A stretch of DNA of 64,000 nt from positions 558,001 through 622,000 of the forward strand of contig NZ_JAPEPX010000001.1 in assembly GCF_026339935.1 (NCBI RefSeq). The letters are read 5' to 3'. Made by a program: the position numbers and the translations under genes. Each line of letters opens with the position of its first letter. Within the stretch, counting starts at the first letter, position 1. The DNA is from Streptomyces sp. NBC_01551 (GTDB taxonomy: Bacteria; Actinomycetota; Actinomycetes; Streptomycetales; Streptomycetaceae). The notes beneath the pieces are model-generated. The model searched no databases. It saw only the letters and a list, made by a program, of their open reading frames with translations, and was not told the origin of the DNA. Shown here piece after piece: positions 7,128 to 25,612 of this stretch.

Positions 7128-7646
7128 CTACGCGAGACCCGACGCCCGGAACACCGTGTGTGCCGTCTCCCGGTCGATCAGCCGGCACAGGCGCCGCAGC
7201 GGCACGAGGCCCTCGCGCATCGTGCCGCGCGCGAGGCTGGTGTGGATGTCCCGGTCCAGGACGTGCCACAACGGCGGGTTCGCGGCCAGGACGCGGGGGT
7301 CGACTTCGAGGCGGTTGCCGTCGATGTCCCGCAGCACGAGCCGCTGCGCGACCCCGTCGTGCCAGGCGACCGAGGCCAGCCGGTCCGTGTGGACGCGGCG
7401 GCGGTGGACCAGGCCCCGGGTGGTGAGCAGGCCCGGGACGGCGCGGACGCGGGTCGGCCACAGGACGAGGAACAGGGCGAGGCCGAGCGCGGTCCACACC
7501 ACGACGCGGCGCCAGTCGGCGGAGCCGGCCGCCGTGTCGACGGCCAGGAGCAGCGCCGGGAAGAGGGTGGCGAGGCCGGTCGCGGCGCGGGCGTCGCCCG
7601 CCCAGCCGCGGTCCTGCGCGGGCGCCGGTTCGGGTGCGGGGTTCAC
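7128..7646 (-). CDS. PH-like domain small membrane protein
   Basis: 172 residues from a GTG start whose bases overlap the stop of the upstream universal stress gene (GTGA, 4 bp), implying translational coupling. Residues about 12-55 hold two closely spaced hydrophobic segments (GLATLFPALLLAVDTAAG and VVVWTALGLALFLVLWPT). The rest is a soluble beta-rich part (GLVHRRRVHTDRLASVAWHDG, then LRDIDGNRLEVDP) that resembles bacterial PH-like domains of membrane proteins. The frame is open far upstream, but only this part is not shadowed by the universal stress gene. Function unknown; its pairing with a stress protein under a putative KdpE site suggests an osmotic-stress role. Confidence 0.7.
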   Translation of the reverse strand: MNPAPEPAPAQDRGWAGDARAATGLATLFPALLLAVDTAAGSADWRRVVVWTALGLALFLVLWPTRVRAVPGLLTTRGLVHRRRVHTDRLASVAWHDGVAQRLVLRDIDGNRLEVDPRVLAANPPLWHVLDRDIHTSLARGTMREGLVPLRRLCRLIDRETAHTVFRASGLA

Positions 7647-8158
7647 CGGGCCAGCTCCCGCGCGTCCAGCGGCATCCGCCACGCGTTGCGGCGGCGTACG
7701 GCGGCCAGGTCGGCCTGGAGCGGGCTGGGCGGCACCGCCAGGACGGGGCAGGGGGCGTGCGCGACGCAGTACCGGGCGACCGAGGGCGCCAGCGCGCGCA
7801 GCAGCGGCCCGCGTGAGCCGGTGCCGACGACGAGCAGGTCGCCCGGGTCGTGGACGGCGTCGACCAGCGCGGCGCCGGGCGTGCCGCGGGCGGTCAGCCC
7901 GGCCAGCGTGACCCCCGGCGGGCGCTCGCCGAAGGCGGTCCCCAGGATCTCCCGCAGCCGCTCGACCGCCACGGACCGGCAGCCGTCGAGGACGGACAGG
8001 CCGCAGGAGCCGCGGCCGCCGAGTCCTCCGCCGGGCGGTTGCCAGGCCAGCACCACCCACAGTTCCGCGTCCCGGGCGCGGGCCTCGGCGGCCGCCCGGT
8101 GCAGTGCCGCCAGGCTCCCGAGGGATCCGCCCGTCCCCACCACGACTCTCGCTCGCAC
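7643..8158 (-). CDS. universal stress protein family protein
   Basis: 171 residues. The start is the GTG giving VRARVVVGTGGSLGSLAALHRA, chosen because GGAGGGG lies at good spacing upstream and because the family fold begins at this beta strand; the open frame extends to 8266 without family similarity. The C-terminal nucleotide-binding loop DLLVVGTGSRGPLLRALAPSVARYCVAHAPCPVLAV matches the Usp pattern but lacks the final Gly of G-2x-G-9x-G-S/T, so ATP binding may be altered. It is the first gene of a two-gene operon with the PH-like membrane protein. Its promoter carries the minus-strand tandem 11-bp repeat. Confidence 0.85.
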   Translation of the reverse strand: MRARVVVGTGGSLGSLAALHRAAAEARARDAELWVVLAWQPPGGGLGGRGSCGLSVLDGCRSVAVERLREILGTAFGERPPGVTLAGLTARGTPGAALVDAVHDPGDLLVVGTGSRGPLLRALAPSVARYCVAHAPCPVLAVPPSPLQADLAAVRRRNAWRMPLDARELAR

Positions 8159-8231
8159 CGTCCCGACCCCTCCCCGCTCCGCGTTCGTACGACGCCTCCC
8201 ATGGAACGGCGGGAAGCGGCCCCGGGGCGGT

Positions 8232-8274
8232 TTCGCTGACGGTCTTCTGACGCCGCGTCCGCACATCCTGACGC
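8232..8274 (-). promoter_or_regulatory. tandem 11-bp direct repeat (putative KdpE box) upstream of the stress gene
   Basis: On the minus strand GCGTCAGAAGA (8253-8243) is followed directly by CCGTCAGCGAA (8242-8232). A further copy, GCGTCAGGATG, lies at 8274-8264. The 11-bp period is the one OmpR/PhoB-family regulators bind. The site is 74 bp upstream of the GTG start of the universal stress gene. Similar repeats occur at 8299-8352, 13132-13153 and 17477-17530. Confidence 0.5.
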
Positions 8275-8298
8275 GTCCCTGATCCGGCGGGGCGCGGG

Positions 8299-8352
8299 CC
8301 GTCAGCGACGTGTATGGACTCGGGCCTTCGCCGTCAAGGTGGCGTCAGGAGG
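8299..8352 (+). promoter_or_regulatory. tandem 11-bp direct repeat (putative KdpE box) upstream of the SAV_915-like gene
   Basis: On the plus strand CCGTCAAGGTG (8331-8341) is followed directly by GCGTCAGGAGG (8342-8352). An outlying half-site, CCGTCAGCGAC, starts 32 bp upstream at 8299. The kdp promoter shows the same arrangement, a tandem pair plus a third copy 32 bp away. It lies 87 bp before the ATG at 8439, divergent from the site serving the stress gene. Confidence 0.5.
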
Positions 8353-8438
8353 CGGCGCGCAGCGGCCGGGGTCGGGCATAGCTTCGGTGGCGCGCCTCAG
8401 GCGCCATCAGTCGATCGTGGTTCCTCAGGGAGGGCCCC

Positions 8439-8792
8439 ATGTGTCTGTTCCAGTACGCCGACGACCCCGAGCCCGAAGAACGGATCCCGGCCGGGCCGCT
8501 GTTCGTGCCCGTCCGGCCGGGGAGCGGAGGAGCGCCGGTGATCCGGCTGTTCCGTACTCCGCTGGGCATGCGTACGGCCGTCGGCTTCACCCGCGCGGAG
8601 CGGCTGGCCGCGACGCTCGGCGAGGGCCAGGCGTACATCCGGCTGGCGGAGTCCGCGCTGCGGGCGCTGTGCGAGCCGCTCGGCGCGGGGCTGGTCACCG
8701 TGGACCCGACGCTGTCGGCTCCCCCGGTGGCGGCCCCGGTCGCGCCGGCGCCGGACCGGCTCCCGGTCCCGCACGCCGGCCGGGCCGTCTGA
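8439..8792 (+). CDS. small SAV_915-like conserved protein
   Basis: 117 residues, opening MCLFQYADDPEPEERIPAGPLFVPV. ATG start behind a strong GGGAGGG site. A central conserved-looking stretch (VIRLFRTPLGMRTAVGFTRAERLAATLGEGQAYIRLAESALRALCEPLG) is followed by a Pro/Ala-rich tail. I associate this pattern with a small family found in streptomycetes (SAV_915), of unknown function; that link is from memory and unverified. No membrane segment or signal peptide. It ends 16 bp before the decarboxylase gene, so the two should form an operon, with a putative KdpE site upstream. Confidence 0.7.
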   Translation: MCLFQYADDPEPEERIPAGPLFVPVRPGSGGAPVIRLFRTPLGMRTAVGFTRAERLAATLGEGQAYIRLAESALRALCEPLGAGLVTVDPTLSAPPVAAPVAPAPDRLPVPHAGRAV

Positions 8793-8808
8793 GAGCGAGG
8801 GGATCGAA

Positions 8809-10143
8809 ATGACCATGACCACGCTGCCCGAGGTCACCGCGGGCGCGGACGAGCTGTCCATATGGCCGGCGTCCACCAGCCGCCTGCCGCACGGCGGCCT
8901 CGCCGTCGGCGGGGTGTCCCTCGCCGAGGTGGCCGACCGCTTCGACACCCCGGCGTACGTCCTGGACGAGGGCGAGGTACGGGCCCGCTGCCGGACGTAC
9001 CGGGACGCCTTCCCCGAGGCCGAAGTGATGTACGCCGCCAAGGCGTTCCTGTCCCGGGCGATGGTGCGCTGGGTCGACGAGGAGGGCCTCGGGCTGGACG
9101 TGTGCTCGGCGGGCGAGCTCGAACTCGCCGTCACCGCCGGGTTCCCGCCGGAGCGGATCGTCCTGCACGGCAACGCCAAGTCGCCGCGCGACATCGGGGC
9201 GGCGCTGCGGCTCGGCGTCGGCCGGATCGTGATCGACAGCGCGTCCGAGATCGCCCGGCTGGCGGCCGCCGTGGGGCCGGGCGGCCATCAGAAGGTGCTG
9301 GTCCGGGTGGTCCCCGGGATCTCGGCGGGCGGCCACGAGAAGATCCGGACCGGCACCGACGGCCAGAAGTTCGGGCTGTCGCTCACCGACGGCTCGGCGC
9401 AGCACGCCGTCGCCCGGGTCCTGGGCCAGCCGCAGCTCGAACTGGTCGGCCTGCACTGTCACATCGGCTCGCAGATCACCGAGGTCAAGCCGTACGTGGC
9501 CGCCCTGCGCCGGGTCGTGGGGCTGATGGCGCGGATCCGGGACGCCCACGGCCTGGTGCTGCCCGAGCTGGACATGGGAGGCGGGCACGGCGTCGCGTAC
9601 CGGCCCGGCGAGCCGGCGCTGGACCTCACGGCGCTGGCCCGCGGGCTGCGCGGCGAGCTCGCCTCGGCGTGTGCGGCGGCCGGGCTGGCGGTGCCCCGGC
9701 TGGCCGTCGAGCCGGGCCGGGCGGTCGTCGGGCCGGCGGGGGTTGCGCTGTACCGCGTCCTCTCGGTGAAGCACACCGGGGACCGGGTGTTCGTCGCCGT
9801 GGACGGCGGTATGAGCGACAACCCCCGGCCCGCCCTGTACGGGGTGCGGTACGCGCCCCGGCTGGTCGGCCGCCACTCCGGCGCGGAGCCCCGTACCGCC
9901 ACCGTGGTCGGGCGGCACTGCGAGGCGGGCGACGTCCTCGCCGCCGACGTGGAGCTTCCCGGCGACATCCGGCCCGGTGACCTGCTGGCCGTGCCCGTGG
10001 CGGGCGCGTACCACCTCTCCATGGCCTCCGGCTACAACATGATCGGCCGCCCGCCGGTCGTCGCGGTGGCCGACGGCGCCGCCCGCCTCCTGGTCCGGCG
10101 CGAGACGCTGGACGACTTCCGCGGCCGGGACGTCGGCGCGTAG
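8809..10143 (+). CDS. lysA: diaminopimelate decarboxylase-like PLP enzyme
   Basis: 444 residues, fold type III PLP enzyme. The PLP lysine is in EVMYAAKAFLSRAM near residue 83. Further family motifs are GLHCHIGSQI, LDMGGGHGV, AVEPGRAVVG, GGMSDNPRPALYG, CEAGD (catalytic Cys) and GAYHLSMASGYN. These are the substrate-contacting motifs of meso-diaminopimelate decarboxylase, which makes L-lysine. Streptomycetes usually keep their main lysA next to hom-thrC, so this copy, coupled to a SAV_915-like gene and not to lysine genes, may be a paralog with a stress role or a slightly different substrate (inference). GAGGGG ribosome site upstream. Confidence 0.88.
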   Translation: MTMTTLPEVTAGADELSIWPASTSRLPHGGLAVGGVSLAEVADRFDTPAYVLDEGEVRARCRTYRDAFPEAEVMYAAKAFLSRAMVRWVDEEGLGLDVCSAGELELAVTAGFPPERIVLHGNAKSPRDIGAALRLGVGRIVIDSASEIARLAAAVGPGGHQKVLVRVVPGISAGGHEKIRTGTDGQKFGLSLTDGSAQHAVARVLGQPQLELVGLHCHIGSQITEVKPYVAALRRVVGLMARIRDAHGLVLPELDMGGGHGVAYRPGEPALDLTALARGLRGELASACAAAGLAVPRLAVEPGRAVVGPAGVALYRVLSVKHTGDRVFVAVDGGMSDNPRPALYGVRYAPRLVGRHSGAEPRTATVVGRHCEAGDVLAADVELPGDIRPGDLLAVPVAGAYHLSMASGYNMIGRPPVVAVADGAARLLVRRETLDDFRGRDVGA

Positions 10144-10147
10144 GGGA

Positions 10148-11020
10148 TCAGCCGCACAGCCGGGCCACGCGTTCCAGTTCGTCGGCGAGGACGCCCGGGT
10201 CACGGGGGCCGATGTGGGGGGCCGCGAGGGAACGGACGCGGAACCGGTTGTGCGGCGTGACCTCGTCGGCCTCCTTGATCATGAGGTCCTGGAGTTCCGG
10301 CGGGATCGTGCGGTCCTCGGTGAGCCGCACGAAGGTGCGCGGGATCCGGCCCCACGTCTCGGGCAGGCCCCGGGAGTCGGCGGGCGAGATCGAGGCCGCC
10401 TCGTCGGGTTCGAGGATGTTGAGCAGGGCCCGGATCTCGTGCTCGGGGTAGTCGGCGGCGAGGGCCTCGCGCGCGGCGTCCAGCAGCGCCGGGTCGTTGG
10501 AGCGCCAGTTGATCCGGTTGACGCCCAGTTCCGGGGCGGTCTGGACGACGGGAAGCCGGAAGATCATGCTCGCGGCGGCCTCCGGCGCCGCCATCAGCTC
10601 CATGGCGGACTTCCGCCGGGCGGGGCAGAAGGCCGAGACGTAGACCAGGTGCGCGAGCAGCTCGGGCACCTGGTTGGCGACGGCGTTGAGGGTCACGCCG
10701 CCCATGCTCTGGCCGACGAGGACCACGGGGCCCAGCCGGTGGGCCCGGCGGACGACGGCGGTGACGTGCTCGGCGAAGTCGGCCAGCGTCACCTTGCCCA
10801 GCGGGGAGGGCTCCGTACGCAGCCGCTCCGGGTCCTGCGGTGTCTGGTAGGAGGCGGGGAGGTACGCGCCGGGGCCGTGGCCGGGCAGGTCGACCGCGAC
10901 GGCGCGCTGTCCGCGCAGGGCGAGTTCGGCGAGCAGGGGGGACCAGCCGTACGCGTTGCTGCCGGCTCCGTGGACGAGGACGAAGGTGGGGGCCCCGGCG
11001 GCCCCGGTGGTGTCGGTCAT
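10148..11020 (-). CDS. alpha/beta hydrolase
   Basis: 290 residues with the alpha/beta hydrolase landmarks: oxyanion segment FVLVHGAGSNAYGW near residue 15, nucleophile elbow VLVGQSMGGV near residue 105, and a C-terminal His in LAAPHIGPRD. The sequence resembles the esterase/hydroxynitrile lyase-like (MenH/SABP2-like) branch. No signal peptide; cytoplasmic esterase or similar. Convergent with the decarboxylase gene, only 4 bp apart. Substrate unknown. Confidence 0.85.
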   Translation of the reverse strand: MTDTTGAAGAPTFVLVHGAGSNAYGWSPLLAELALRGQRAVAVDLPGHGPGAYLPASYQTPQDPERLRTEPSPLGKVTLADFAEHVTAVVRRAHRLGPVVLVGQSMGGVTLNAVANQVPELLAHLVYVSAFCPARRKSAMELMAAPEAAASMIFRLPVVQTAPELGVNRINWRSNDPALLDAAREALAADYPEHEIRALLNILEPDEAASISPADSRGLPETWGRIPRTFVRLTEDRTIPPELQDLMIKEADEVTPHNRFRVRSLAAPHIGPRDPGVLADELERVARLCG

Positions 11021-11109
11021 GCGGTCAACCGTACGAGCCGATGATCATGTACACGGCGAGATCCGGCCATGTCCGGCCCCCGCCGCCCGCCGGGCGGTGC
11101 TCCCCCGCC

Positions 11110-13047
11110 TCAGCCCGCGTGGACGTGGGGGCGGCGGTTGCGGTCGGGTTCCGCCTCGCGGATGACCTCGCGGGTGACGGGGGCGACTTCGCCCTGTCCG
11201 AAGAGGAAGAAGCGGAGGAAGTTGGCCATCGGGTTGCCCTCGGTCCATTCGAAGTAGATGTGGGGGCGTTGCCCGGTCTCGTCCCGGACGTGGAGGAGGA
11301 GGGCGGCGAGCGCGTTGGGGATGCTGGAGCTCTCCAGGGTCAGGACGCGGTAGCGGTCGTGCAGGACCTCACCGCGCACCCGCATGCCGGATTCGAACTC
11401 CGACGCGTCCAGGACGGTGACCTCGACGAACATCACGTCGTCCTCGGCCGGAATGTCGTTGTCCGCGCGGATTTGCGCCTTCTTCTGCCTGTACTCGTCG
11501 AGGTCCCGGCTGTCGGGCTCGTTGGCGATGAGCCGGATGGTGCGGTTGGCGGTGTCACGGATGAACCGCTGCGCCATGTCGTCGAACTCCACGTGCGTGA
11601 CGCGCAGCTCGAAGACCCGGGCGAGCCGGGACAGGAGGGACAGCGCCATGATGCCGCCGATGAAGCAGGCGCCGATCTTCACGCCGTCCGGCCGCTCCAC
11701 GACGTTGACGGCGGTGGTGTAGATGAAGACGGCCGAGATGACGCCGAAGCCGATCGTCCAGCCGCGCTCGCCGGCCCGGCGGGCGGCGATGGTCACGGCG
11801 ACGGCCGCCGAGGTGATCAGGACGAGGACACCGGTGGCGTAGGCGCCGCCCTGGGCGTCGACGTCGGCGTTGAAGATCCAGGTCACCAGGAAGGCGATCA
11901 GCGTGAACACGATGACCATCGGGCGCAGGGCACGGGCCCACTGCGGGGCCATGCCGTAGCGGGGCAGGTAGCGCGGCATCAGGTTCAGCAGGCCCGCCAT
12001 CGCGGAGGCGCCGGCGAACCACAGGATCAGGATCGTCGAGATGTCGTAGACCGTGCCGAAGGCAGAGCCCAGGTACTCGTGTGCCAGGTAGGCGAGGGCG
12101 CGGCCGTTGGCCTCGCCGCCCGGCTCGAACTGGGCGGCCGGGATCAGCAGGGTGGTGATCAGGCTGGAGCAGATCAGGAAGACGCTCATGATCACTGCGG
12201 CCGTGGTCAGCAGCTTCTTCGCACCGCGGATCCGGCCGGCGGGCCTCTCCTCGGTGTCCGCGGGGTCGCCGTGGACGTGCGGCATGACCGCCACGCCGGT
12301 CTCGAAGCCGGAGAGGCCGAGCGCGAGCTTCGGGAACACGACGAGGGCGATGGCGATCATCATGAAGACGTTGCCGTGCTCGGCGGTCAGCGCGGTCGTC
12401 CAGTCGGTGATGACCTGCGGTTCGGCGAACACGTTCCACAGCCCCACCGCCACCACGACGACGTTCAGGCCGAGATAGGTGGCCACCAGGACCACCGCGA
12501 CGCCGATGGCCTCGCTGAACCCCTTGAGGAACACCGCGCCGAGCAGCGCGATCATGATCAGGGTGATCAGCACCTCGTGCCCGTGCAGGGTGGAGGTCAG
12601 GTGCGGGTTCTCCACCAGGTGGGCGGTCGCGTCCGCGGCCGACAGGGTGATGGTGATCAGGAAGTCGGTGGCCGCGAACCCGAGCAGGGTCAGGACGAAC
12701 AGCTTCCCCTTCCAGAAGGTCAGCAGCCGCTCCAGCATGGCGATGGAACCCTCGCCGTGCGGGCTCTCCTCGGCCACCCGCCGGTAGACGGGCAGCGCAC
12801 CGAACAGGGTCAGCAGCACGAGCACGATGGTCGCCAGCGGCGACAGCAGACCGGCCGCCAGGAAGGCGATGCCGGGCTGGTAGCCGAGGGTGGAGAAGTA
12901 GTCCAGACCGGTCAGGCACATGACGCGCCACCACGGCCTGCCGTGGGGCTGGGCCGCCGCCTCCTTGGCGGCGGGCGAACTCGTCTGGGCGGTCAAGCCT
13001 TCCAGCAGCCACGCCCGCAGGCGCGAGGTGCGGGCAGGGGTGGCCAT
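11110..13047 (-). CDS. APC superfamily permease with C-terminal cytoplasmic domain
   Basis: 645 residues. ATG start ([14 protein letters not shown]) with AGGAGC at 8 bp; the frame extends upstream to 13131 but overlaps the putative KdpE box there. About 12 membrane segments start with [21 protein letters not shown] cytoplasmic C-terminal part of about 170 residues follows (from [17 protein letters not shown] onward). N-terminal helix motifs and length fit the APC group that includes potassium importers of KUP/KimA type as well as amino acid transporters. Its place beside KdpB, KimA and Kdp genes favours ion uptake or osmoadaptation. Substrate not established. Confidence 0.82.
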
Positions 13048-13131
13048 CGTGGGGTGCTCCTGTCGTACGGCATGGTTTCGGCCATCGACGCGACGGCCGA
13101 GCCAGCGTACGAATTCTGATCGTCCGCGCAC

Positions 13132-13153
13132 GGATCTGAGCGAATCCTGACGT
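13132..13153 (-). promoter_or_regulatory. tandem 11-bp direct repeat (putative KdpE box) upstream of the APC permease
   Basis: On the minus strand ACGTCAGGATT (13153-13143) is followed directly by CGCTCAGATCC (13142-13132), a less perfect second half. It lies in the 157-bp gap between the orphan kdpB and the permease, about 85 bp upstream of the permease ATG. This suggests the permease has its own promoter. Confidence 0.42.
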
Positions 13154-13204
13154 GTCTTTAACGCGAACCGCTCCCCCGGCGTAGCGGGCGGCCGCCGCGG
13201 GGCA

Positions 13205-15355
13205 TCACCCCAGGCCGGGGATGGTGGAGACCACGAGGTCGATGACCTTGATGCCGACGAAGGGCAGGACGAGGCCGCCGAGGCCGTAGACGGCGAGGTT
13301 GCGGCGCAGCAGGTCGTGCGCGGAGGCCGGGGTGTAGCGGACCCCGCGCAGCGAGAGCGGGATCAGCGCCACGATGATCAGGGCGTTGAAGATGATCGCC
13401 GAGGCGATGGCCGAGGTGGGGCTGTGCAGTCCCATGACGTTGAGCGCGCCGAGCCCCGGAAAGGCCGACGCGAACATGGCCGGAATGATCGCGAAGTACT
13501 TCGCGACGTCATTGGTGATCGAGAAGGTGGTCAGGGCCCCCCGGGTGATGAGGAGTTGCTTGCCGATCTCGACGATGTCGAGGAGCTTGGCGGGATTGGA
13601 GTCCAGGTCCACCATGTTCCCGGCCTCCTTGGCGGCCGAGGTGCCCGTGTTCATCGCCACGCCCACGTCCGCCTGCGCGAGGGCCGGGGCGTCGTTCGTT
13701 CCGTCACCCGTCATCGCGACGAGCCTGCCGCCCGCCTGCTCCCGCTTGATCAGGGCGAGCTTGTCCTCCGGGGTGGCCTCGGCGAGGTACTCGTCGACAC
13801 CGGCCTCCCGCGCGATCGCGGCCGCGGTCAGCGGGTTGTCCCCGGTGACCATGACCGTACGGATGCCCATGCGGCGCAGTTCCGCGAACCGCTCGGCGAT
13901 CCCGTCCTTGACGACGTCCTTGAGGTGGATGATCCCGAGGACGCGCGGGCCCTCCCAGTCGTGGACGGCGACCAGCAGGGGCGTGCCGCCCGACCGCGAC
14001 ACCCGCGCGGCCCACTCGGCGGCCTCGGGCGGCACGCTGCCGCCGCGCATCGTCACCCAGTCGGTGATCTGGGGGACGGCGCCCTTGCGAATGGCGCAGC
14101 CGGTCCCGTTGTCCCAGCTCAGGTTGAGCCCGCTCATCCGGGTCCGGGCGCTGAACTCCACGAAGCGCGGATGGCTCAGCTCGTGCTCCGCCGGGGCCGT
14201 CAGTCCGTACCGCTCGGCGAGGGCGACGACGGAGCGGCCCTCGGGGGTGTCGTCGGCGAGCGAGGAGAGCTGCGCGGCGTCGGCCAGTGCGGCGTGCTCG
14301 ACGCCCGGGAGCGGGAAGAACCGCTCGGCTTCCCGGTTGCCGGTGGTGATGGTGCCGGTCTTGTCGAGGAGCAGGGTGTTCACGTCCCCGGCGGCCTCCA
14401 CGGCCCGGCCGCTCATCGCCAGGACGTTGCGCTGCACGAGGCGGTCCATGCCGGCGATGCCGATCGCGGAGAGCAGTGCGCCGATGGTGGTGGGGATGAG
14501 GGTGACGAGCAGCGCCACGAGCACGGCCGTGGACTGGGCGGCGCGGGCGTGGGCGGCCATCGGCTGGAGGGTGACCACGACGAGTACGAAGATCACCGTC
14601 ATGGCGGCCAGCAGGATGTTGAGGGCGATCTCGTTGGGGGTCTTCTGCCGGGCCGCCCCCTCGACCAGGGAGATCATGCGGTCCAGGAAGCCGTGGCCGG
14701 GGCGGGAGGTGACCCGGACGACGACCGAGTCGGACAGGACGGTCGTGCCGCCGGTGACACCACAGCGGTCGCCGCCCGACTCGCGCAGCACGGGCGCCGA
14801 TTCGCCCGTGACGGCGGATTCGTCGATCATGGCGGCGCCGTCCACGACGTCGCCGTCCGCCGGGATCATCCCGCCCGCCTCGACGAGGACGAAGTCGAAG
14901 GGCTGGAGTTCGGCCGCGGTGACGGTCTCCGTCTCGGCGCGGCGCAGGTCGGTCCCGTACGTCCAGTGCTTCAGCCGCAGCGCGACCGTGTCGGTACGGG
15001 CCTTGCGCAGCGACTCCGCCTGCGCGCGGCCGCGGCCCTCCGCGACCGCCTCGGCGAGGTTCGCGAAGAGCACGGTCAGCCACAGCCATCCGCTGATCAC
15101 CCAGGTGAACACCGACGGGTGCAGGAGCCCGGAGAGCGTGGTCCAGGCGGATCCGACGGCGACGACGAACAGCACCGGCTTGCGCACCAGTTCGCGCGGC
15201 CGGAGCTTGCGCACCGCCTCGCGGGCCGAGGCCGCCAGGCGTGCCGGCTCCAGCACGCTCGCCGGTCCGGGGCGCTTGCGGGACGGCCGGTTCACGGGGG
15301 CCGGCGACGGGGTCCCGAGACCCGGCGGGGTGTGCTGGGCGGCAGCGGAGGGCAT
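13205..15355 (-). CDS. kdpB: stand-alone KdpB-type P-type ATPase subunit
   Basis: 716 residues from ATG ([14 protein letters not shown]) with AGAAGG at 8 bp; the longer open frame upstream only shadows the KimA-like gene. All KdpB catalytic parts are intact: [12 protein letters not shown], phosphorylation site [13 protein letters not shown] near residue 330, [10 protein letters not shown], and [34 protein letters not shown]. No KdpA, KdpC or KdpF lies beside it; it sits 50 bp downstream of the KimA-like gene and upstream of the APC permease. The locus 2 kb away encodes a second, complete KdpFABC. It may serve as an alternative pump subunit for that complex or act with the neighbouring permeases (inference). 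Confidence 0.9.
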
Positions 15356-15405
15356 CGAGTGGCCTTCTGGGAGAGGGGGTCCGGTCGGGGTGGTGGGTCG
15401 TGCCG

Positions 15406-17274
15406 TCAGCGCGCGTCGTCGGTGATGCGGAACCGCAGTCGGCAGATCACCGCGTCGGTGTCGCGGCGTACGGCGTGGGCGACGACGGATCCGCGCTGGT
15501 TCTGCAGGAGGCGCTGCCACAGGTGCGCGGGCTCGGTCTCCGGGATCAGGACGGTGACCTGGGAGTCCGGGTGGGTGGCGGTGAGTTCGCGGACGTAGCC
15601 GGAGACCGGGCGGCCCAGGGCGCGGGTCGGTGAGGTGAGCTCGACGAGTGCGACGCCGGGGTTCCAGAGCTCCCAGTCGCGGCGCAGTGCTTCGGCGTTC
15701 TTGCGGTCCTCGGTCGCGGGGTGGGTGACGGTGACGGCGAGGACCTCGTCGCCCAGCGAGCGGGCGGCGGTCAAGGCCTGGCAGGTCAGCCTCGACAGTC
15801 CGGAGACGGGGACGACGACCAGCGAGCGGGCCCGGGTCGGGGGCTGCGGGATCCGGCCGAGTTCCAGGCGCTCGCCGATGCGTGCGTAGGTGCGCTGGAT
15901 CTTCTCGAAGCCGAGGACCAGCAGCGGCAGGGCCAGCACGATCAGCCAGGCGCCCTCGGTGAACTTGGTGGCGGTGACGACGACGGCCGCCACCCCGGTC
16001 AGGAGCGCGCCGAACCCGTTGAGGGCGGCGTTGGCCTGCCAGCGCGCGGGGCGCTCCCCGTACCAGTGCCGGACCATCCCGACCTGGCAGACGGTGAAGC
16101 CGACGAACACGCCGATCGCGAAGAGCGGGACGAGGGTGTTGGTGTCGCCGCCGGAGAAGACCAGCAGGAGCGCGGAGACGGCGGCGAGCGCGAGGACGCC
16201 GTGCCGGTGCACCTGGCGGTCGGCCTTGAGGGCGAACAGGTGCGGCAGGTGGTTGTCGCGGGCCAGCAGGCTCATCAGGACCGGCAGGCCCCCGAAGGAG
16301 GTGTTGGCGGCGAGGGCGAGGAGAACCATGGTGGCGAACTGGACGACGTAGAAGGCCGCGTTGTGCCCGAAGGAGGCGTCGGCGAGCTGGGCGAGGACGG
16401 TGACGCCCTCGACCGGCTGGAGGTGGAAGCGGCCGATCAGGACGGAAAGGCCGATCAGCATCACGCCCAGCAGGGCGCCGAGCGCGACCTCGGTGCGTTG
16501 GGCGCGGCGGGCGGCCGGGGCACGGAAGGACGGCACGGCGTTGGCGACGGCCTCGACGCCGGTCAGCGCCGAGCAGCCGGCCGCGAAGGCCTTCAGGAGC
16601 AGCAGCGCGCCGACGGTGGTGGCGCCCTCGCCGAGTGCGGAGGCGTGCCCCGCGGCGGAGGTGGTGCTGACCGGGCCGTCCCGGAACAGGCCGACGGTGA
16701 TCATGGCGAGGATCGAGCCGACGAACAGGGCCGTCGGCAGCAGGAACAGCCTCGCCGAGTCGACGACGCCGCGCAGGTTGACGGCGGTGACCAGGAGGAG
16801 GACGCCGAGGCAGATCCACACCCGCTCCCCGTACAGCTGCGGGAAGGCGGAGGTCAGGGCGGCCACGCCGGCCGTGACCGACACGGCGACGTTCAGCACG
16901 TAGTCGAGGATCAGCGAGGCCGCGGCGACCAGGCCGGTCCGCCGCCCCAGGTGCCGCTTGGCCACGGCGTACGAGCCGCCGCCGTCCGGGAACGCGGCGA
17001 TGACCTGCCGGTACGAGGCCACCAGCACGGCCAGGAGCGCGGCGATCGCGAGCGTGACGGGCAGCGTGAACCCCAGCCCGTACGCCCCGGCGGCCGCGAG
17101 CACCAGCACGATCGACTCGGGCCCGTACGCGACGGAGGCCATCGCGTCGAGGGAGAGCGCGCAGAGCCCCTGGAGGGCGGTCAGCCTGTGACGGGCGTCG
17201 GCCCCGATATCAGGGGGTTCCTCCGTGCCCGCCGCCTTGAGCGCCGTGTCCGGTGTGCCTGCGTGTATGGCCAT
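15406..17274 (-). CDS. kimA: KimA-like high-affinity potassium importer
   Basis: 622 residues, close to the 607 of Bacillus subtilis KimA. ATG start ([12 protein letters not shown]) behind GGAGGA. The N-terminus [25 protein letters not shown], the segment [15 protein letters not shown] and [17 protein letters not shown] follow KimA closely. About 12 membrane helices precede a cytoplasmic C-terminal domain of about 150 residues ([19 protein letters not shown]...) like that of KimA. KimA is a K+/H+ symporter of the APC superfamily, controlled by c-di-AMP in Bacillus. Other APC permeases are the alternative, but similarity to KimA is strong by eye. Divergent from the kdp operon, sharing a 340-bp regulatory region. 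Confidence 0.82.
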
Positions 17275-17385
17275 GACGTGGTTCCTCCGATTGGGCAAAG
17301 TCGAGGAACAGCGTCGAGGCCGGAAGGCGCCCTGCCCAGCACTCTTGGCGGCATCCATACGCCCGCTGCCGCACTCTTCACGCCC

Positions 17386-17460
17386 TCCATACGGGGGGAT
17401 CGGCGGTCCATACGGGGGGATCGGCGGCGCCTCACGCGCTCCGCACGGGGGGCGCGGCGG
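17386..17460 (+). repeat. tandem 21-bp repeats upstream of kdp
   Basis: Two perfect 21-bp copies, each beginning TCCATACGGGGGG and ending CGGCGG, lie head to tail at 17386-17406 and 17407-17427. A third copy at 17440-17460 matches 17 of 21 positions. The core recalls a protein-binding iteron. They precede the putative KdpE boxes by about 20 bp. Confidence 0.75.
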
Positions 17461-17476
17461 CGCCGCGGCGGGGTCC

Positions 17477-17530
17477 GCGTCAGGGGAGCGTCAAGAGTTC
17501 CGGCGCCCCCGTATGGAGCCCGTCAAGGAG
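17477..17530 (+). promoter_or_regulatory. tandem 11-bp direct repeat (putative KdpE box) upstream of kdpFABC
   Basis: GCGTCAGGGGA (17477-17487) is followed directly by GCGTCAAGAGT (17488-17498), and CCGTCAAGGAG lies at 17520-17530, 32 bp after the second copy. This is the best match to the shared motif and stands in front of the operon that encodes KdpE. The kdp operon is the classical KdpE target, which supports the assignment. Confidence 0.58.
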
Positions 17531-17614
17531 TCTTAACGCACCGCTGAGCTCGCGGTTTGCTCGTACTCGGCCACTCCGGCCGATTCCATTCACCACTTCA
17601 TCCAGGAGCTCACG

Positions 17615-17698
17615 ATGGCCGATCTGGCCTTCGTCGTCACCACGGTCGCGGTCTTCGCGCTGGTGGCTCTCATCGCCAAGGGGGTGACCAAGCTGTGA
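17615..17698 (+). CDS. 27-residue single-pass membrane peptide upstream of kdpF
   Basis: Small ORF starting [14 protein letters not shown] and ending in a basic tail AKGVTKL. One hydrophobic helix spans almost its full length. It has its own AGGAG site 6 bp before the ATG. Its stop overlaps the GTG start of kdpF (GTGA), so the two are translationally coupled. It looks like a second KdpF-like lipid-stabiliser or a regulatory membrane peptide of the Kdp pump. It is below the size cut-off of most gene callers; function is inferred from position only. Confidence 0.7.
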
Positions 17699-17784
17699 CC
17701 GCCGAGAACATCGTCGGCCTGCTCGTGGCCGTCTCCCTGCTGGGTTACCTCATCCTCGCCCTTGTGTACCCGGAGAGGTTCTGA
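17695..17784 (+). CDS. kdpF: potassium-transporting ATPase subunit KdpF
   Basis: 29 residues, [19 protein letters not shown]..., ending YPERF. One transmembrane helix plus the short acidic/basic ends typical of KdpF, which stabilises the KdpABC complex in the membrane. GTG start overlapping the previous small ORF; ends 8 bp before kdpA. Length is standard for KdpF. Confidence 0.9.
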
Positions 17785-17792
17785 GCACTGAC

Positions 17793-19457
17793 ATGAGCCC
17801 CGCAACCGCTGGTGTGCTCCAGCTGCTCGCGCTGATCGGCGCGCTCGCACTGGCATACCGTCCGCTCGGCGACCACATGGCCCGGGTCTACTCCTCCGAG
17901 AAGCACTACACGCCGGAGAAGTGGATATACAAGGCCATCGGCGCCAACCCGTCGGCCGAGATGCGCTGGCCCGCGTACCTGCGCGGCGTCCTGGCGTTTT
18001 CCGCCGTGAGTGTCCTCTTCCTCTACGTCCTGCAGCGCCTGCAGGGCGTCCTGCCCGGCTCGCTCGGCTTCGTGTCGATCGACCCGGACCAGGCGTTCAA
18101 CACCGCCGCGTCGTTCGTGGCGAACACCAACTGGCAGTCGTACTACGGCGAGCAGGCCATGGGCCACGTCGTGCAGACCGGCGGCCTCGCGGTCCAGAAC
18201 TTCGTCTCGGCGGCGGTCGGCATGGCCGTGGCCGTGGCGCTCGTACGCGGCTTCGCCCGCTCCCGTACCGGTGAGCTCGGCAACTTCTGGGCGGACCTGG
18301 TGCGCGGCACCGTCCGCATCCTGCTGCCCCTCTCGGTGATCGGCGCGCTGATCCTCGTCGCGTGCGGCGTGATCCAGAACTTCGCCGGGATCCACGAGGT
18401 CGGCCAGTTCATGGGCGGCACGCAGCAGTGGAACGGCGGCGCGGTGGCCTCGCAGGAGGTCATCAAGGAGCTGGGCACCAACGGCGGCGGTTACTTCAAC
18501 GCCAACTCGGCCCACCCGTTCGAGAATCCGACCCCGTTCTCCAACCTGTTCGAGGTCTTCCTGATCCTGGTCATCCCGTTCGCCCTGACGCGGACCTTCG
18601 GCCGGATGGTCGGCAACCTGCGCCAGGGTTACGCGATCCTCGCCACCATGGGCGTCATCTGGGTCGGTTTCACGGCGCTGATGATGTGGACCGAGTTCGC
18701 CCACCACGGCCCGGCGCTCCAGGCGGCGGGCGGGGCGATGGAGGGCAAGGAGACCCGCTTCGGCATCGGCGCCTCGTCGATCTTCGCCGTGGCCACCACC
18801 CTGACCTCGACGGGCGCGGTCAACTCCTTCCACTCCTCCTACACCGGCTTCGGCGGCGGCATCACCATGCTGGGCATGCAGCTCGGCGAGATCGCGCCCG
18901 GCGGTGTCGGTTCCGGCCTCTACGGCATGCTGATCATGGCGATCATCGCGGTGTTCATCGCCGGCCTGATGGTCGGCCGCACGCCCGAGTACCTGGGCAA
19001 GAAGATCGGCACCCGCCAGATCAAGCTGGCCGCCTGCTACATCCTCATCACCCCGGCGCTGGTGCTCTGCTTCACCGCCGCCGCGATGGCGCTGCCCACC
19101 CCGGGCAACTCGATGGCCAACCCCGGCGCGCACGGATTCTCCGAGATCCTCTACGCCTACACCTCGGGCGCCAACAACAACGGCTCCGCGTTCGCGGGCC
19201 TGAACGCCGACACGCAGTGGTTCAACTCGACCATCGGCATCGCGATGCTGCTGGGCCGCTTCCTGCCGATCGTGTTCGTCCTGGCCTTGGCCGGCTCGCT
19301 CGCCGAGCAGCAGCCCGTACCGGCCACGGCGGGCACGCTTCGCACCGACAAGCCGCTCTACGCGGGCCTGCTCGTCGGCACGATCGTCATCATCACCGGT
19401 CTGACCTACTTCCCCGCCCTCGCGCTGGGCCCGCTTGCCGAAGGGCTCGCCTCATGA
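17793..19457 (+). CDS. kdpA: potassium-transporting ATPase subunit KdpA
   Basis: 554 residues, standard KdpA length. It is the K+-selective channel-like subunit with about ten membrane helices. Selectivity-loop motifs are visible: [19 protein letters not shown] near residues 228-246, [10 protein letters not shown] near 340 and [13 protein letters not shown] near 455. It takes K+ from outside and passes it to KdpB. Its stop overlaps the kdpB start (ATGA), as expected for a tightly coupled complex. Confidence 0.97.
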
Positions 19458-22341: not shown

Positions 22342-23025
22342 ATGACCCGGGTGCTCGTGGTGGAGGACGACCCCCAGCTCGTACGCGCGCTGAAGATCAA
22401 CCTCCAGGCGCGGAAGTTCGAAGTGGAAGAGGCCACCGACGGCACCGCCGCGCTCCGGCTCGCGGCCGCCCGCAAGCCGGACGTCATCCTGCTGGACCTC
22501 GGACTGCCGGACATGGACGGCGTGGAGGTGATCAGGGGGGTCCGCGGCTGGAGCCGGGTGCCCATCCTGGTGGTCTCCGCCCGCCACACGTCCGAGGAGA
22601 AGATCCGGGCCCTGGACGCCGGCGCCGACGACTACGTGACGAAACCGTTCAGCATGGACGAGCTGCTGGCCCGGCTGCGGGCGGCCACCCGCCGGCAGGA
22701 GGATCCCGCCGGGTCCGCCGGGCCGGCCCTGGTCACGACGGACGACTTCACCGTGGACCTGGCGGCGAAGAAGGTGGTGCGCGCCGACCGCACCGTGCGC
22801 CTGACCCCGACCGAGTGGCACCTGCTGGAACTGCTGATCGCCCATCCCGGGCACCTCGTCTCCCAGCGCAAGCTGCTGCTGGAGGTCTGGGGGCCGACGT
22901 ACGCGGAGCACACCAACTACCTCCGGGTCTACATGGCCCAGCTGCGGCGCAAGCTGGAGGCGGATCCCTCCCATCCCCGGTACCTGATCACCGAGCCGGG
23001 CATGGGCTACCGCTTCGAACCCTGA
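22342..23025 (+). CDS. kdpE: response regulator KdpE
   Basis: 227 residues, OmpR/PhoB family. Receiver domain with acidic pocket VVEDD and phospho-acceptor Asp52 in ILLDLGLPDMDG, Lys in DYVTKPFSMDEL, then a winged-helix DNA-binding domain (LTPTEWHLLELLIAHPGHLVSQ...TNYLRVYMAQLRRKLE). It should activate kdpFABC when phosphorylated by KdpD. Gene order here is kdpE before kdpD, the reverse of Escherichia coli. Candidate binder of the 11-bp tandem repeats in this window. Confidence 0.96.
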   Translation: MTRVLVVEDDPQLVRALKINLQARKFEVEEATDGTAALRLAAARKPDVILLDLGLPDMDGVEVIRGVRGWSRVPILVVSARHTSEEKIRALDAGADDYVTKPFSMDELLARLRAATRRQEDPAGSAGPALVTTDDFTVDLAAKKVVRADRTVRLTPTEWHLLELLIAHPGHLVSQRKLLLEVWGPTYAEHTNYLRVYMAQLRRKLEADPSHPRYLITEPGMGYRFEP

Positions 23026-23065: not shown

Positions 23066-25612
23066 ATGAGACGCGGAAAGCTCCGGATCTACCTCGGCTC
23101 GGCCCCGGGCGTCGGCAAGACGTACGCGATGCTCTCCGAGGCCCACCGCAGGATCGAGCGAGGCACCGACTGCGTCGTCGGCTTCGTCGAACACCACCAC
23201 CGGCCGCGCACCGAGGTCATGCTGCACGGCCTGGAAGTGACCCCGCGAAGGGAAATCCCGTACCGGGACAGCACCTTCACGGAGATGGACGTGGACGCCC
23301 TGCTGGCGCGCCGGCCCGCGGTCGCCCTCGTGGACGAGCTCGCGCACACGAACATCCCGGGCGCGCGCAACGCCAAGCGCTGGCAGGACGTGGAGGAGCT
23401 CCTCCAGGCCGGGATCGACGTCGTCACCACCGTCAACATCCAGCACCTGGAGTCCCTCGGCGACGTCGTGGAGACCATCACCGGGGTGCGCCAGCGCGAG
23501 ACGGTGCCGGACGAGGTGGTGCGGCGCGCGGACCAGATCGAGCTCGTCGACATGTCGCCGCAGGCCCTGCGCCGCCGGATGGCGCACGGCAACATCTACA
23601 AGCCCGACAAGGTCGACGCCGCGCTCTCCAACTACTTCCGCCCCGGCAACCTGACGGCGCTGCGCGAACTCGCGCTGCTGTGGGTCGCCGACCGGGTGGA
23701 CGAGTACCTCCAGGAGTACCGCGGCGAGCACGACATCCGCTCCACCTGGCAGGCCCGCGAGCGGATCGTCGTCGGCCTCACCGGCGGCCCCGAGGGCCGT
23801 ACCCTGATCCGCCGCGCCGCCCGGCTCGCCGAGAAGGGCGCGGGCGGCGAGGTGCTGGCCGTGTACATCGCGGCCAGCGACGGCCTCTCCTCCGCGTCCC
23901 CCAAGGAACTCGGCGTCCAGCGCACCCTGGTCGAGGACCTCGGCGGCACCTTCCACCACGTCATAGGCGATGACGTGGCGTACTCCCTGCTGGAGTTCGC
24001 CCGGGGGGTGAACGCGACCCAGATCGTCCTCGGCGTCAGCCGCCGACGGCCCTGGCAGTACGTGTTCGGCCCGGGGGTGAGCGCCACGGTGGCCGTCGAG
24101 TCCGGGCCCGACCTCGACGTCCACATGGTCACCCACGACGCCGCCGCCCGGGGCCGCGGCCGTCTGCCGGTGGCCCGCGGCGCCCGGCTGGGCCGCTCGC
24201 GCCTCGCCTGGGGGTGGCTGACCGGTGTCGTCGGCCCCGCCCTGCTCACCCTGCTGCTCCACCAGGTCGTCCCCGGGCTCGGACTCGCGAACGACATGCT
24301 GCTGTTCCTCACCTTCACGGTCGCGGCAGCGCTGCTCGGCGGGCTGCTGCCGGCCCTCGCGTCGGCCGCGTTCGGCTCCCTGCTGCTGAACTACTTCTTC
24401 ACACCGCCGCTCTACCGGCTCACGGTCTCCGACCCGCGCAACATCGTCGCCATCTCGATCTTCGTCGGGGTTGCCGTGTCGGTGGCCTCCGTGGTGGACC
24501 TGGCCGCCCGCCGCACCCACCAGGCCGCCCGGCTGCGGGCCGAGTCCGAGATCCTCTCCTTCCTCGCGGGCAGCATCCTGCGCGGCGAGGATTCCCTGGA
24601 CGCCCTGCTGGAGCGGCTGCGCGAGACGTTCTCGATGCAGTCCGTGGCCCTGCTGGAGCGGGCCGGCGAGGTGGAGCCGTGGACCACGGCCGGCGCCGTC
24701 GGCGCGCGTCCGGTCGCCCGCCCCGAGGACGCCGATGTGGACATGCCGATAGGGGACAACATGGCCCTCGCCCTGTCGGGGCGGGTGCTGCCCGCCGAGG
24801 ACCGGCGGGTGCTGGGCGCCTTCGCCGCGCAGGCGGCCGTCGTCCTCGACCGTCAGCGCCTGGTCGACGAGGCGGGCAGGGCCCGGGAACTCGCGGAGGG
24901 CAACAAGATCCGTACCGCCCTGCTGGCGGCCGTCAGCCACGACCTGCGCACCCCGCTCGCGGGCATCAAGGCGTCGGTCACCTCGCTGCGTTCCGACGAC
25001 GTCGAATGGTCCGAGGCCGACCGGGCCGAGCTGCTGGAGGGCATCGAGGAAGGCGCCGACCGGCTCGCCGCGCTGATCGGGAACCTCCTGGACATGTCCC
25101 GCCTGAACACCGGGGCCGTCGTCCCGCTGATCCGCGAGACCGACCTGGACGAGGTCGTCCCGATGGCCCTGGGCGGCGTACCCGACGGCAGCGTCGAGCT
25201 GGACATCCCCGAAACCCTGCCGATGGTCGCCGTCGACCGGGGGCTGCTGGAGCGGGTCGTGGCGAACGTCGTGGAGAACGCCGTCAAGTACAGCCCGGAC
25301 GGGCAGCCCGTCCTCGTCTCCGCCAGTTGTCTGCCGGGCCGGGTGGAGCTGCGGGTCGTCGACCGCGGGCCCGGCGTCCCAGACGAGGCGAAGGACCGGA
25401 TCTTCGCGCCGTTCCAGCGGTACGGGGACGCCCCGCGGGGTGCCGGCGTCGGCCTCGGGCTCGCGGTGGCCCGCGGCTTCACGGAGGCCGTCGGCGGCAC
25501 CCTGACCGCCGAGGACACCCCCGGCGGCGGGCTCACCATGGTGCTCACCCTGCCCACGGCCGCCGACGCCCCGCCGGTCGCCCCGGAGCTGCCGGCCTCG
25601 GCGGTCACCTGA
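23066..25612 (+). CDS. kdpD: osmosensitive K+ channel histidine kinase KdpD
   Basis: 848 residues with full KdpD layout. N-terminal KdpD domain has Walker A (GSAPGVGKTYAML) and Walker B-like VALVDELAHTN. A universal-stress domain follows (about 230-360), then four membrane helices (about 385-480), a GAF-like region and the kinase core. The phospho-acceptor His is in AAVSHDLRTPLAGIKAS near residue 627; N and G boxes are NVVENAVKYSPDG and GVGLGLAVARGF. It senses low K+/turgor and phosphorylates KdpE. Its last 8 bases overlap the convergent TetR gene. Confidence 0.96.
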   Translation: MRRGKLRIYLGSAPGVGKTYAMLSEAHRRIERGTDCVVGFVEHHHRPRTEVMLHGLEVTPRREIPYRDSTFTEMDVDALLARRPAVALVDELAHTNIPGARNAKRWQDVEELLQAGIDVVTTVNIQHLESLGDVVETITGVRQRETVPDEVVRRADQIELVDMSPQALRRRMAHGNIYKPDKVDAALSNYFRPGNLTALRELALLWVADRVDEYLQEYRGEHDIRSTWQARERIVVGLTGGPEGRTLIRRAARLAEKGAGGEVLAVYIAASDGLSSASPKELGVQRTLVEDLGGTFHHVIGDDVAYSLLEFARGVNATQIVLGVSRRRPWQYVFGPGVSATVAVESGPDLDVHMVTHDAAARGRGRLPVARGARLGRSRLAWGWLTGVVGPALLTLLLHQVVPGLGLANDMLLFLTFTVAAALLGGLLPALASAAFGSLLLNYFFTPPLYRLTVSDPRNIVAISIFVGVAVSVASVVDLAARRTHQAARLRAESEILSFLAGSILRGEDSLDALLERLRETFSMQSVALLERAGEVEPWTTAGAVGARPVARPEDADVDMPIGDNMALALSGRVLPAEDRRVLGAFAAQAAVVLDRQRLVDEAGRARELAEGNKIRTALLAAVSHDLRTPLAGIKASVTSLRSDDVEWSEADRAELLEGIEEGADRLAALIGNLLDMSRLNTGAVVPLIRETDLDEVVPMALGGVPDGSVELDIPETLPMVAVDRGLLERVVANVVENAVKYSPDGQPVLVSASCLPGRVELRVVDRGPGVPDEAKDRIFAPFQRYGDAPRGAGVGLGLAVARGFTEAVGGTLTAEDTPGGGLTMVLTLPTAADAPPVAPELPASAVT

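What the first reader, a model, noticed from the sequence alone, without database searches (positions are those of the whole stretch)
8232..17530. Shared 11-bp tandem repeats mark a candidate KdpE regulon
Four separate promoter regions carry two head-to-tail 11-mers of the form SCGTCARGRNN: 8243-8253 with 8232-8242 (minus strand, Usp/PH operon), 8331-8341 with 8342-8352 (SAV_915/decarboxylase operon), 13143-13153 with 13132-13142 (minus strand, APC permease) and 17477-17487 with 17488-17498 (kdp, and possibly kimA). The 8299 and 17520 half-sites both sit 32 bp from their pairs. OmpR/PhoB regulators bind direct repeats with this period and KdpE is encoded within the island.
Basis: partly seen in the sequence, partly recalled or inferred. 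Interest (0 to 1): 0.75.

Follow-up and report, generated by a model that had tools for sequence, protein, structure and literature searches.

The report
KdpE control sites in potassium island
Several neighbouring promoters in this Streptomyces genome carry the same paired 11-base repeats that a potassium-starvation switch protein binds in a related bacterium, so transporters, a stress protein and a spare lysine-making enzyme are probably switched on together when potassium runs low.

Summary
Eighty related kdp loci show that the full element is four half-sites: two head-to-tail 11-bp dimers, 32 bp apart, each a CGTAWGG/CGTCAGG unit followed by a CGTCAA-type unit. The SAV_915 and APC-permease sites are weak alone but kept in relatives. 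The 22-bp KdpE site of Mycobacterium smegmatis fits the same dimer model. In 150 Streptomyces genomes the kdp-trained model also finds arrays before kdpDE, PH–APC permease, kimA and Usp. KdpE binding is untested here, and the genome holds two KdpE proteins that could share the sites. The 11-bp period is already known for KdpE. What appears new is the double-dimer array, widespread in Streptomyces and present in some other actinobacteria, and a regulon that includes kimA and a second diaminopimelate decarboxylase.

The parts
17477..17530 (+). KdpE-box array of kdpFABC-kdpE-kdpD: half-sites 17477-17487, 17488-17498, 17509-17519, 17520-17530 (two 11-bp dimers, 32 bp apart)
   Evidence: 57.8 bits with a 53-bp model trained on other genomes only, null maximum 6.0; same layout in 79 of 80 related loci
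17556..17561 (+). -10-like TTTGCT of kdp, 35 bp from the core start of the last half-site
   Evidence: T at +35 in 78 of 78 and at +36 in 75 of 78 relatives (L025 and L085 left out)
17341..17394 (-).
   Evidence: 34.0 bits, null maximum 6.0; four-unit score at p<0.01 in 15 of 19 kimA promoters of relatives
17310..17315 (-). -10-like GACGCT of kimA at the same +35 offset
8299..8352 (+). KdpE-box array of SAV_915-lysA2: 8299-8309, 8310-8320 (GTGTATGGACT), 8331-8341, 8342-8352
   Evidence: four-unit score 37.3, p=0.006; tandem units in 9 of 9 relatives by eye; not found by the strict 53-bp model
8378..8383 (+). -10-like ATAGCT of SAV_915 at the same +35 offset
8232..8285 (-). KdpE-box array of Usp-PH: 8285-8275 (degenerate), 8274-8264, 8253-8243, 8242-8232
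   Evidence: 14.4 bits; four-unit score at p<0.01 in 4 of 7 Usp promoters of relatives
13132..13164 (-). Candidate KdpE dimer of the APC permease: GCGTTAAAGAC 13164-13154, ACGTCAGGATT 13153-13143; weaker third unit 13142-13132
   Evidence: 12.6 bits, not significant alone; tandem score at p<0.01 in 7 of 15 relatives
7131..7643 (-).
   Evidence: arrays lie before PH-APC operons in other genomes
7646..8161 (-). Usp, universal stress protein
   Evidence: Pfam PF00582
8439..8792 (+). SAV_915 family protein
   Evidence: NCBIfam NF042914
8809..10143 (+). LysA2, second diaminopimelate decarboxylase
   Evidence: TIGR01048 427 bits, cut-off 297.9; another lysA lies beside a homoserine dehydrogenase gene elsewhere
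11110..13047 (-). APC family permease (APC1)
   Evidence: names of homologues; weak similarity to KimA
15406..17274 (-). KimA, K+ transporter
   Evidence: 6s3k KimA E=3.2e-126
17793..19457 (+). kdpA (kdpB and kdpC follow)
22342..23025 (+). kdpE response regulator
   Evidence: 4kny KdpE E=2.9e-67; DNA-contact residues kept
23066..25612 (+). kdpD sensor kinase
   Evidence: best NCBIfam match is KdpD, below its curated cut-off

Best explanation
These are KdpE binding arrays of a local potassium-starvation regulon. KdpD, sensing low K+, phosphorylates KdpE (inferred from known KdpDE systems). KdpE then binds each pair of 11-bp repeats as a head-to-tail dimer, and two dimers sit 32 bp, about three helical turns, apart on the same face of the DNA (spacing shown, binding inferred). 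In kdp, kimA and SAV_915 the core of the last half-site starts 35 bp before a -10-like hexamer (shown), so KdpE would end just upstream of the -35 position and probably activates by touching RNA polymerase there (inferred; no start site is mapped). Targets in the window are kdpFABC-kdpED, kimA, SAV_915-lysA2, Usp-PH and, less certainly, the APC permease. The second KdpE of the genome, 76% identical with the same contact residues, probably shares the sites.
For: Array in 79 of 80 related kdp promoters, and over 20 bits in 13 of 13 further same-genus and 8 of 16 other-genus kdpA loci fetched. Fits the footprinted M. smegmatis KdpE site. A kdp-trained model finds arrays before kdpDE, PH-APC, kimA and Usp in other genomes. 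KdpE (E<=1e-50) is in 146 of 150 genus genomes. E. coli KdpE also binds direct repeats with 11-bp period, and its contact residues R193, R200 and T215 are kept in both KdpE copies. Conserved in promoters of kimA, Usp, SAV_915 and APC orthologues.
Against: No binding or expression data. In the whole own genome the strict model reaches E<0.01 only at kdp; kimA is at E=1.0, and Usp, SAV_915 and APC1 are not among its 33 hits at E<=10. As single dimers, Usp (13.1), SAV_915 (12.9) and APC1 (12.6) score below two matches inside the window's kdpB genes (13.8), with 1.43 expected per 64 kb at 12 or more. Usp lacks the array in 3 of 7, APC1 the dimer in 8 of 15 relatives. KdpE loss could not be separated from kdp loss. 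PhoP-type relatives also use 11-bp direct repeats, so the period alone does not name KdpE. In M. tuberculosis no such site and no KdpE binding were found, according to PMC5401905 (passage).
Confidence: 0.82

Rival explanations
1. The sites belong mainly to the second KdpE (76% identical, encoded with its own KdpD at G000:C1:5161911), and the window's KdpE is a specialised or redundant copy.
For: The 73-77% type is the common KdpE in the genomes searched. A tandem site lies 61 bp before that kdpD. Many kdp promoters without kdpDE nearby keep the array.
Against: The recognition helix and the wing are identical in the alignment of the two copies, so exclusive use is unlikely.
Confidence: 0.3
2. 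Another OmpR/PhoB-type regulator, such as PhoP or MtrA, binds the repeats.
For: That family uses direct repeats of the same period (PMC4832192, start of abstract). The own genome has 13 further KdpE-like hits at 37-46% identity.
Against: Sequence match to the M. smegmatis KdpE site; arrays sit before kdp, kdpDE and kimA in the genus.
Confidence: 0.08
3. CGTCAA units are simply -35 elements (TTGACG read backwards).
For: CGTCAA is the reverse complement of TTGACG.
Against: Wrong strand for the genes, 35 bp to the -10-like hexamer, many units are CGTAWGG or CGTCAGG, and the 11/32 spacing is fixed.
Confidence: 0.03
4. KdpE controls only kdp and kimA; the SAV_915, Usp and APC repeats are remnants or chance.
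For: Weak single-dimer scores and no hit genome-wide at E<=10.
Against: Kept in part of the orthologues, and Usp and PH-APC promoters were found in other genomes by the kdp-trained model.
Confidence: 0.18

Closest known systems
KdpE binding site of Mycobacterium smegmatis kdpFABC (PMC5401905)
   Same: The 22-bp minimal site divides into two 11-bp units, CCGTAAAGAAA and CCATCAAGGCC, and scores 23.4 bits in the Streptomyces dimer model.
   Different: The passages seen report one 22-bp site, at kdp; the words tandem, dimer and half-site do not occur in the main text. Here there are two dimers 32 bp apart and several operons.
E. coli KdpE site (PMC3264566)
   Same: Two direct repeats, 6 bp plus 5 bp between, so an 11-bp period; the same contact residues in KdpE.
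   Different: AT-rich TTTATA/TTTACA half-sites in a single two-half-site element (passages).
OmpR/PhoB-family direct-repeat boxes (for example PhoP)
   Same: Head-to-tail 11-bp architecture (M. tuberculosis PhoP: 7-bp motif plus 4-bp spacer, start of abstract).
   Different: Half-site sequence differs (PHO box GTTCACC is recalled and comes from no call).

Membership tests
KdpE binding site | Direct repeats with 11-bp period | tested here: met
   86 CGTCAR pairs at spacing 11 in 80 loci, at most 2 for each of six control hexamers
KdpE binding site | Upstream of kdpFABC and conserved | tested here: met
   79 of 80 loci
KdpE binding site | Similar to a footprinted KdpE site of an actinobacterium | tested here: met
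   23.4 bits, 0 of 20,000 scrambles as high; site from PMC5401905 passages
KdpE binding site | Cognate KdpE encoded, DNA-contact residues kept | tested here: met
   (residue numbers transferred by hand along the alignment)
KdpE binding site | Array lost where KdpE is lost | tested here: inconclusive
   4 of 4 KdpE-less genomes lack the array, but they also lack kdpA
KdpE binding site | Bound by KdpE and induced by low K+ | not testable with these tools
   needs gel shift, footprint and transcript data
c-di-AMP (ydaO) riboswitch control of kimA or kdp | ydaO structure in the leader | tested here: not met
   No Rfam match in the window at gathering threshold
PHO box (PhoP) | GTTCACC-type half-sites (recalled) | not tested
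   No PhoP model was run; the consensus is CGTAWGG and CGTCAAG
-35 promoter element | 16-19 bp from a -10 in the coding direction | tested here: not met
   Opposite strand and 35 bp to the -10-like hexamer

The most novel reading that the evidence does not exclude
KdpE directs a counter-cation switch. Under K+ starvation it induces pumps (KdpFABC, KimA) and also a second diaminopimelate decarboxylase (LysA2), so that the cell makes lysine, a positively charged amino acid, as a partial substitute for potassium, with the APC permease and the SAV_915 and Usp/PH proteins as helpers.
Probability: 0.15. Interest if true: 0.8.

Novelty: new variant of a known kind. Interest (0 to 1): 0.57.

Why it matters
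[quoted passage not shown] it adds unpublished data that KdpDE is not needed for development or growth with 0.5 M NaCl or KCl). A precise double-dimer KdpE box with fixed spacing makes the regulon directly testable, lets the mycobacterial 22-bp site be read as two 11-bp units, and puts kimA, whose product c-di-AMP inactivates in Bacillus subtilis (same passages), under KdpE here. The link to a spare lysA suggests a testable idea on how bacteria live with too little potassium.

Tried and rejected
A KdpE-dependence test on kimA failed. Of 18 genomes without a kdpA hit (two of them known only by elimination), 16 have a KimA hit, but only of 39-42% identity, that is, paralogues; 0 of the 17 loci carry a four-unit array and 3 have a weak dimer. 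Two of the four KdpE-less genomes have no KimA hit at all. The strict 53-bp model in the own genome finds only kdp below E=0.01; its weaker hits (from E=0.05, one inside the window at 61057-61083) were not followed. Pattern CGTMWGN5CGTYAA has 2 matches outside the window that were not followed. Of the 4 own-genome CGTCAR tandems outside the window, one precedes kdpD2; two (L005, L006) overlap likely coding frames and one (L007) does not, and none of these three was followed. APC1 and PH have no Pfam match even at E=10. The exact reader consensus SCGTCARGRNN was rejected as too narrow. In one search the null windows come from loci that contain real arrays, so those p-values are conservative. 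The 150-genome sample overlaps the training genomes (contig lengths equal those of L017, L034 and L045), so kdp hits in it are partly by construction; the non-kdp arrays were not in the training set. A PhoP model was not run.
Full report
OBSERVATION. Four of eight fit SCGTCARGRNN exactly. CGTCARN5CGTCAR occurs three times in the window, each time between genes, and seven times in the 7.05-Mb genome; three or more in 64 kb has a Poisson probability of 4e-5 if the seven were spread evenly. In 80 loci fetched by KdpA (the best 80 of 588, 78 of them labelled Streptomyces; 1.64 Mb), same-strand CGTCAR pairs pile up at spacings 11 (86), 32 (69) and 43 (39). Six control hexamers have at most 2 pairs at 11; where they are frequent, their counts mostly follow multiples of three, as coding sequence does.

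FULL ELEMENT. Reading the kdp promoters side by side (whose print was cut in the middle) shows four half-sites: CGTAWGG or CGTCAGG, then CGTCAA or CGTTAA 11 bp on, and such a pair again 32 bp further. A fixed-spacing model settles on 79 of 80 promoters, 75 of them 295-320 bp before kdpA. L085, the one miss, has the element with 31 bp by eye. L025, placed at -408, seems to have three dimers in a row, 32 bp apart (by eye).

SCAN OF THE WINDOW. The training set contains no window sequence. The model gives kdp 57.8 bits, a minus-strand array at 17341-17393 in front of kimA 34.0, and the Usp promoter 14.4. The best of 30 simulated 64-kb sequences reached 6.0. As single dimers, Usp, SAV_915 and APC score 13.1, 12.9 and 12.6, where 1.43 are expected per 64 kb at 12 or more; two matches inside the window's kdpB genes score 13.8. 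So SAV_915 and APC are not significant from this scan alone.

CONSERVATION OF THE OTHER PROMOTERS. With a type-free half-site model and 20,000 random 300-bp windows as null, the four-unit score is at p<0.01 in 15 of 19 kimA (19 of 29 loci with a hit passed the identity and start filters), 4 of 7 Usp and 5 of 9 SAV_915 promoters of relatives. The two-unit score is at p<0.01 in 7 of 15 APC promoters, 3 of 19 kimA, 2 of 7 Usp and 1 of 9 SAV_915. In the window itself the values are SAV_915 p=0.006, Usp 0.008, kimA 0.008 (four units) and APC 0.006 (two units). Internal controls gave 0 of 9 (lysA2), 0 of 17 (kdpB2), 0 of 78 (kdpC), 0 of 41 (kdpE), 0 of 38 (kdpD) and 0 of 80 (kdpB) for four units; PH gave 3 of 9. 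By eye all nine SAV_915 promoters have tandem units; some have 31 rather than 32 bp between dimers, which the fixed model misses.

GENUS-WIDE SEARCH. A sequence-only model (R1, 75 kdp arrays) was run on 150 genus genomes: 127 have a hit at E<=0.01. KdpA is in 128 and KdpE, at E<=1e-50, in 146. From those tables, with the unlisted negatives found by elimination: 122 have both array and kdpA, 6 kdpA only, 5 array only, 17 neither. All four KdpE-less genomes are in the last class, so this cannot separate KdpE from kdp. The sample overlaps the training genomes, so kdp hits are partly by construction; the other hits are not. I fetched 24 regions at listed hits that did not lie at a full-length kdpA, or lay at a second array beside one (the list was truncated). 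The arrays precede kdpDE (L145, L146, L147, L158), PH-APC permease (L150, L151, L152, L155, L161, L163) or PH with the end of the APC gene on the other side (L154), kimA (L159), Usp (L160), decayed kdp operons (L143, L144, L149, and L148 judged by eye from a short peptide), an unidentified gene beside a kdpA (L165) and a ubiE-type methyltransferase (L153, L164). Four are unexplained (L156, L157, L162, L166). Thus a model that has seen only kdp promoters returns several genes of the window's island; SAV_915 was not among them.

RANGE. Of the kdpA loci of 93 class genomes with kdpA, the best 30 were fetched. One is the window itself; 13 of 13 others in the genus score 39.9 or more (six of these genomes are also in the 150); of 16 outside the genus 8 exceed 20 bits and three have nothing above 2.

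WHY KdpE. In M. smegmatis KdpE protects this kind of site, and the minimal bound DNA is a 22-mer (PMC5401905, abstract and passages). The 22-mer divides into CCGTAAAGAAA and CCATCAAGGCC. The 18-bp footprint, which lacks the first five bases, did not bind. The 22-mer scores 23.4 bits in the Streptomyces model against a best of 15.9 in 20,000 scrambles. The same paper finds no similar sequence in M. tuberculosis. E. coli KdpE uses two 6-bp repeats 5 bp apart, and R193, R200 and T215 matter for DNA binding (PMC3264566, abstract and passages). Along the alignment these residues are kept in the window's KdpE and in the second KdpE at G000:C1:5161911. The latter's kdpD has a tandem site 61 bp upstream, though not a full array. 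In 50 of 50 genomes checked, of the 80, the best KdpE match is 73% or more identical (in one, G020, over residues 38-226 only), also where kdpDE is not beside kdp.

HOW IT MAY WORK. The core of the last half-site starts 35 bp before TTTGCT (kdp), GACGCT (kimA) and ATAGCT (SAV_915). In relatives' kdp promoters T is at +35 in 78 of 78 and at +36 in 75 of 78. If these are -10 elements, KdpE would sit up to the -35 region, as expected of an activator touching polymerase. The APC promoter does not share this offset, and Usp shows no clear -10. No Rfam family, so no known riboswitch, was found in the window.

REGULON CONTENT. KimA matches the solved KimA. LysA2 passes the diaminopimelate decarboxylase cut-off, while another lysA lies beside a homoserine dehydrogenase gene elsewhere. 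In B. subtilis positively charged amino acids partly replace potassium (PMC5573677, abstract), hence the novel case, which is otherwise untested. An SAV_915-type promoter pattern (up to one mismatch) occurs in 15 of 150 genomes: 9 before SAV_915-lysA2, 1 beside Usp only, 2 before a ubiE-type methyltransferase, 3 elsewhere. That makes four genomes with the methyltransferase link. The window's own promoter differs from the pattern and is not among the 15.

AGAINST. Genome-wide in the own genome only kdp is significant. The KdpE-loss test was uninformative. Nothing here is an experiment.

IN PRINT. The listings (complete) and (20 of 36 and 15 of 42 papers) show no study of a Streptomyces KdpE site or regulon. 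[quoted passage not shown] The library holds open-licence papers only.

CHANGES ON CHECKING. Confidence was lowered from 0.83 to 0.82 and that of the narrow-regulon rival raised from 0.17 to 0.18, because the kdpB matches and the overlap with training genomes are now told.

Noticed in passing
window 13205-15355 (-): A second KdpB (978 bits, TIGR01497) directly downstream of kimA, with no kdpA or kdpC reading the same way beside it; kept next to kimA in several relatives.
   Followed up: no
window 17615-17698 (+): A 27-aa hydrophobic peptide reading frame just before, and overlapping, a KdpF-like frame at 17695-17784 (read by eye).
   Followed up: no
L153, L164, L221, L222: KdpE-type arrays before a ubiE-type methyltransferase (Pfam PF01209) in four genomes, found by two different searches.
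   Followed up: partly
L143, L144, L148, L149: Apparently decayed kdp operons that keep the promoter array after losing most or all of kdpA and kdpB (L148 by eye). L143 has a second array at 3822-3874 (-) that is unexplained.
   Followed up: partly
L025, about 410-325 bp before kdpA: Three dimers in a row, each 32 bp from the next.
   Followed up: no
window 4455-7115 (+): Protein with an eCIS core domain beside the island.
   Followed up: no
window 1175-2323 (-): Nitric oxide synthase oxygenase domain protein.
   Followed up: no
L169-L185: KimA paralogues (39-42%), several within about 10 kb of a KdpE gene, without a four-unit array in front.
   Followed up: partly
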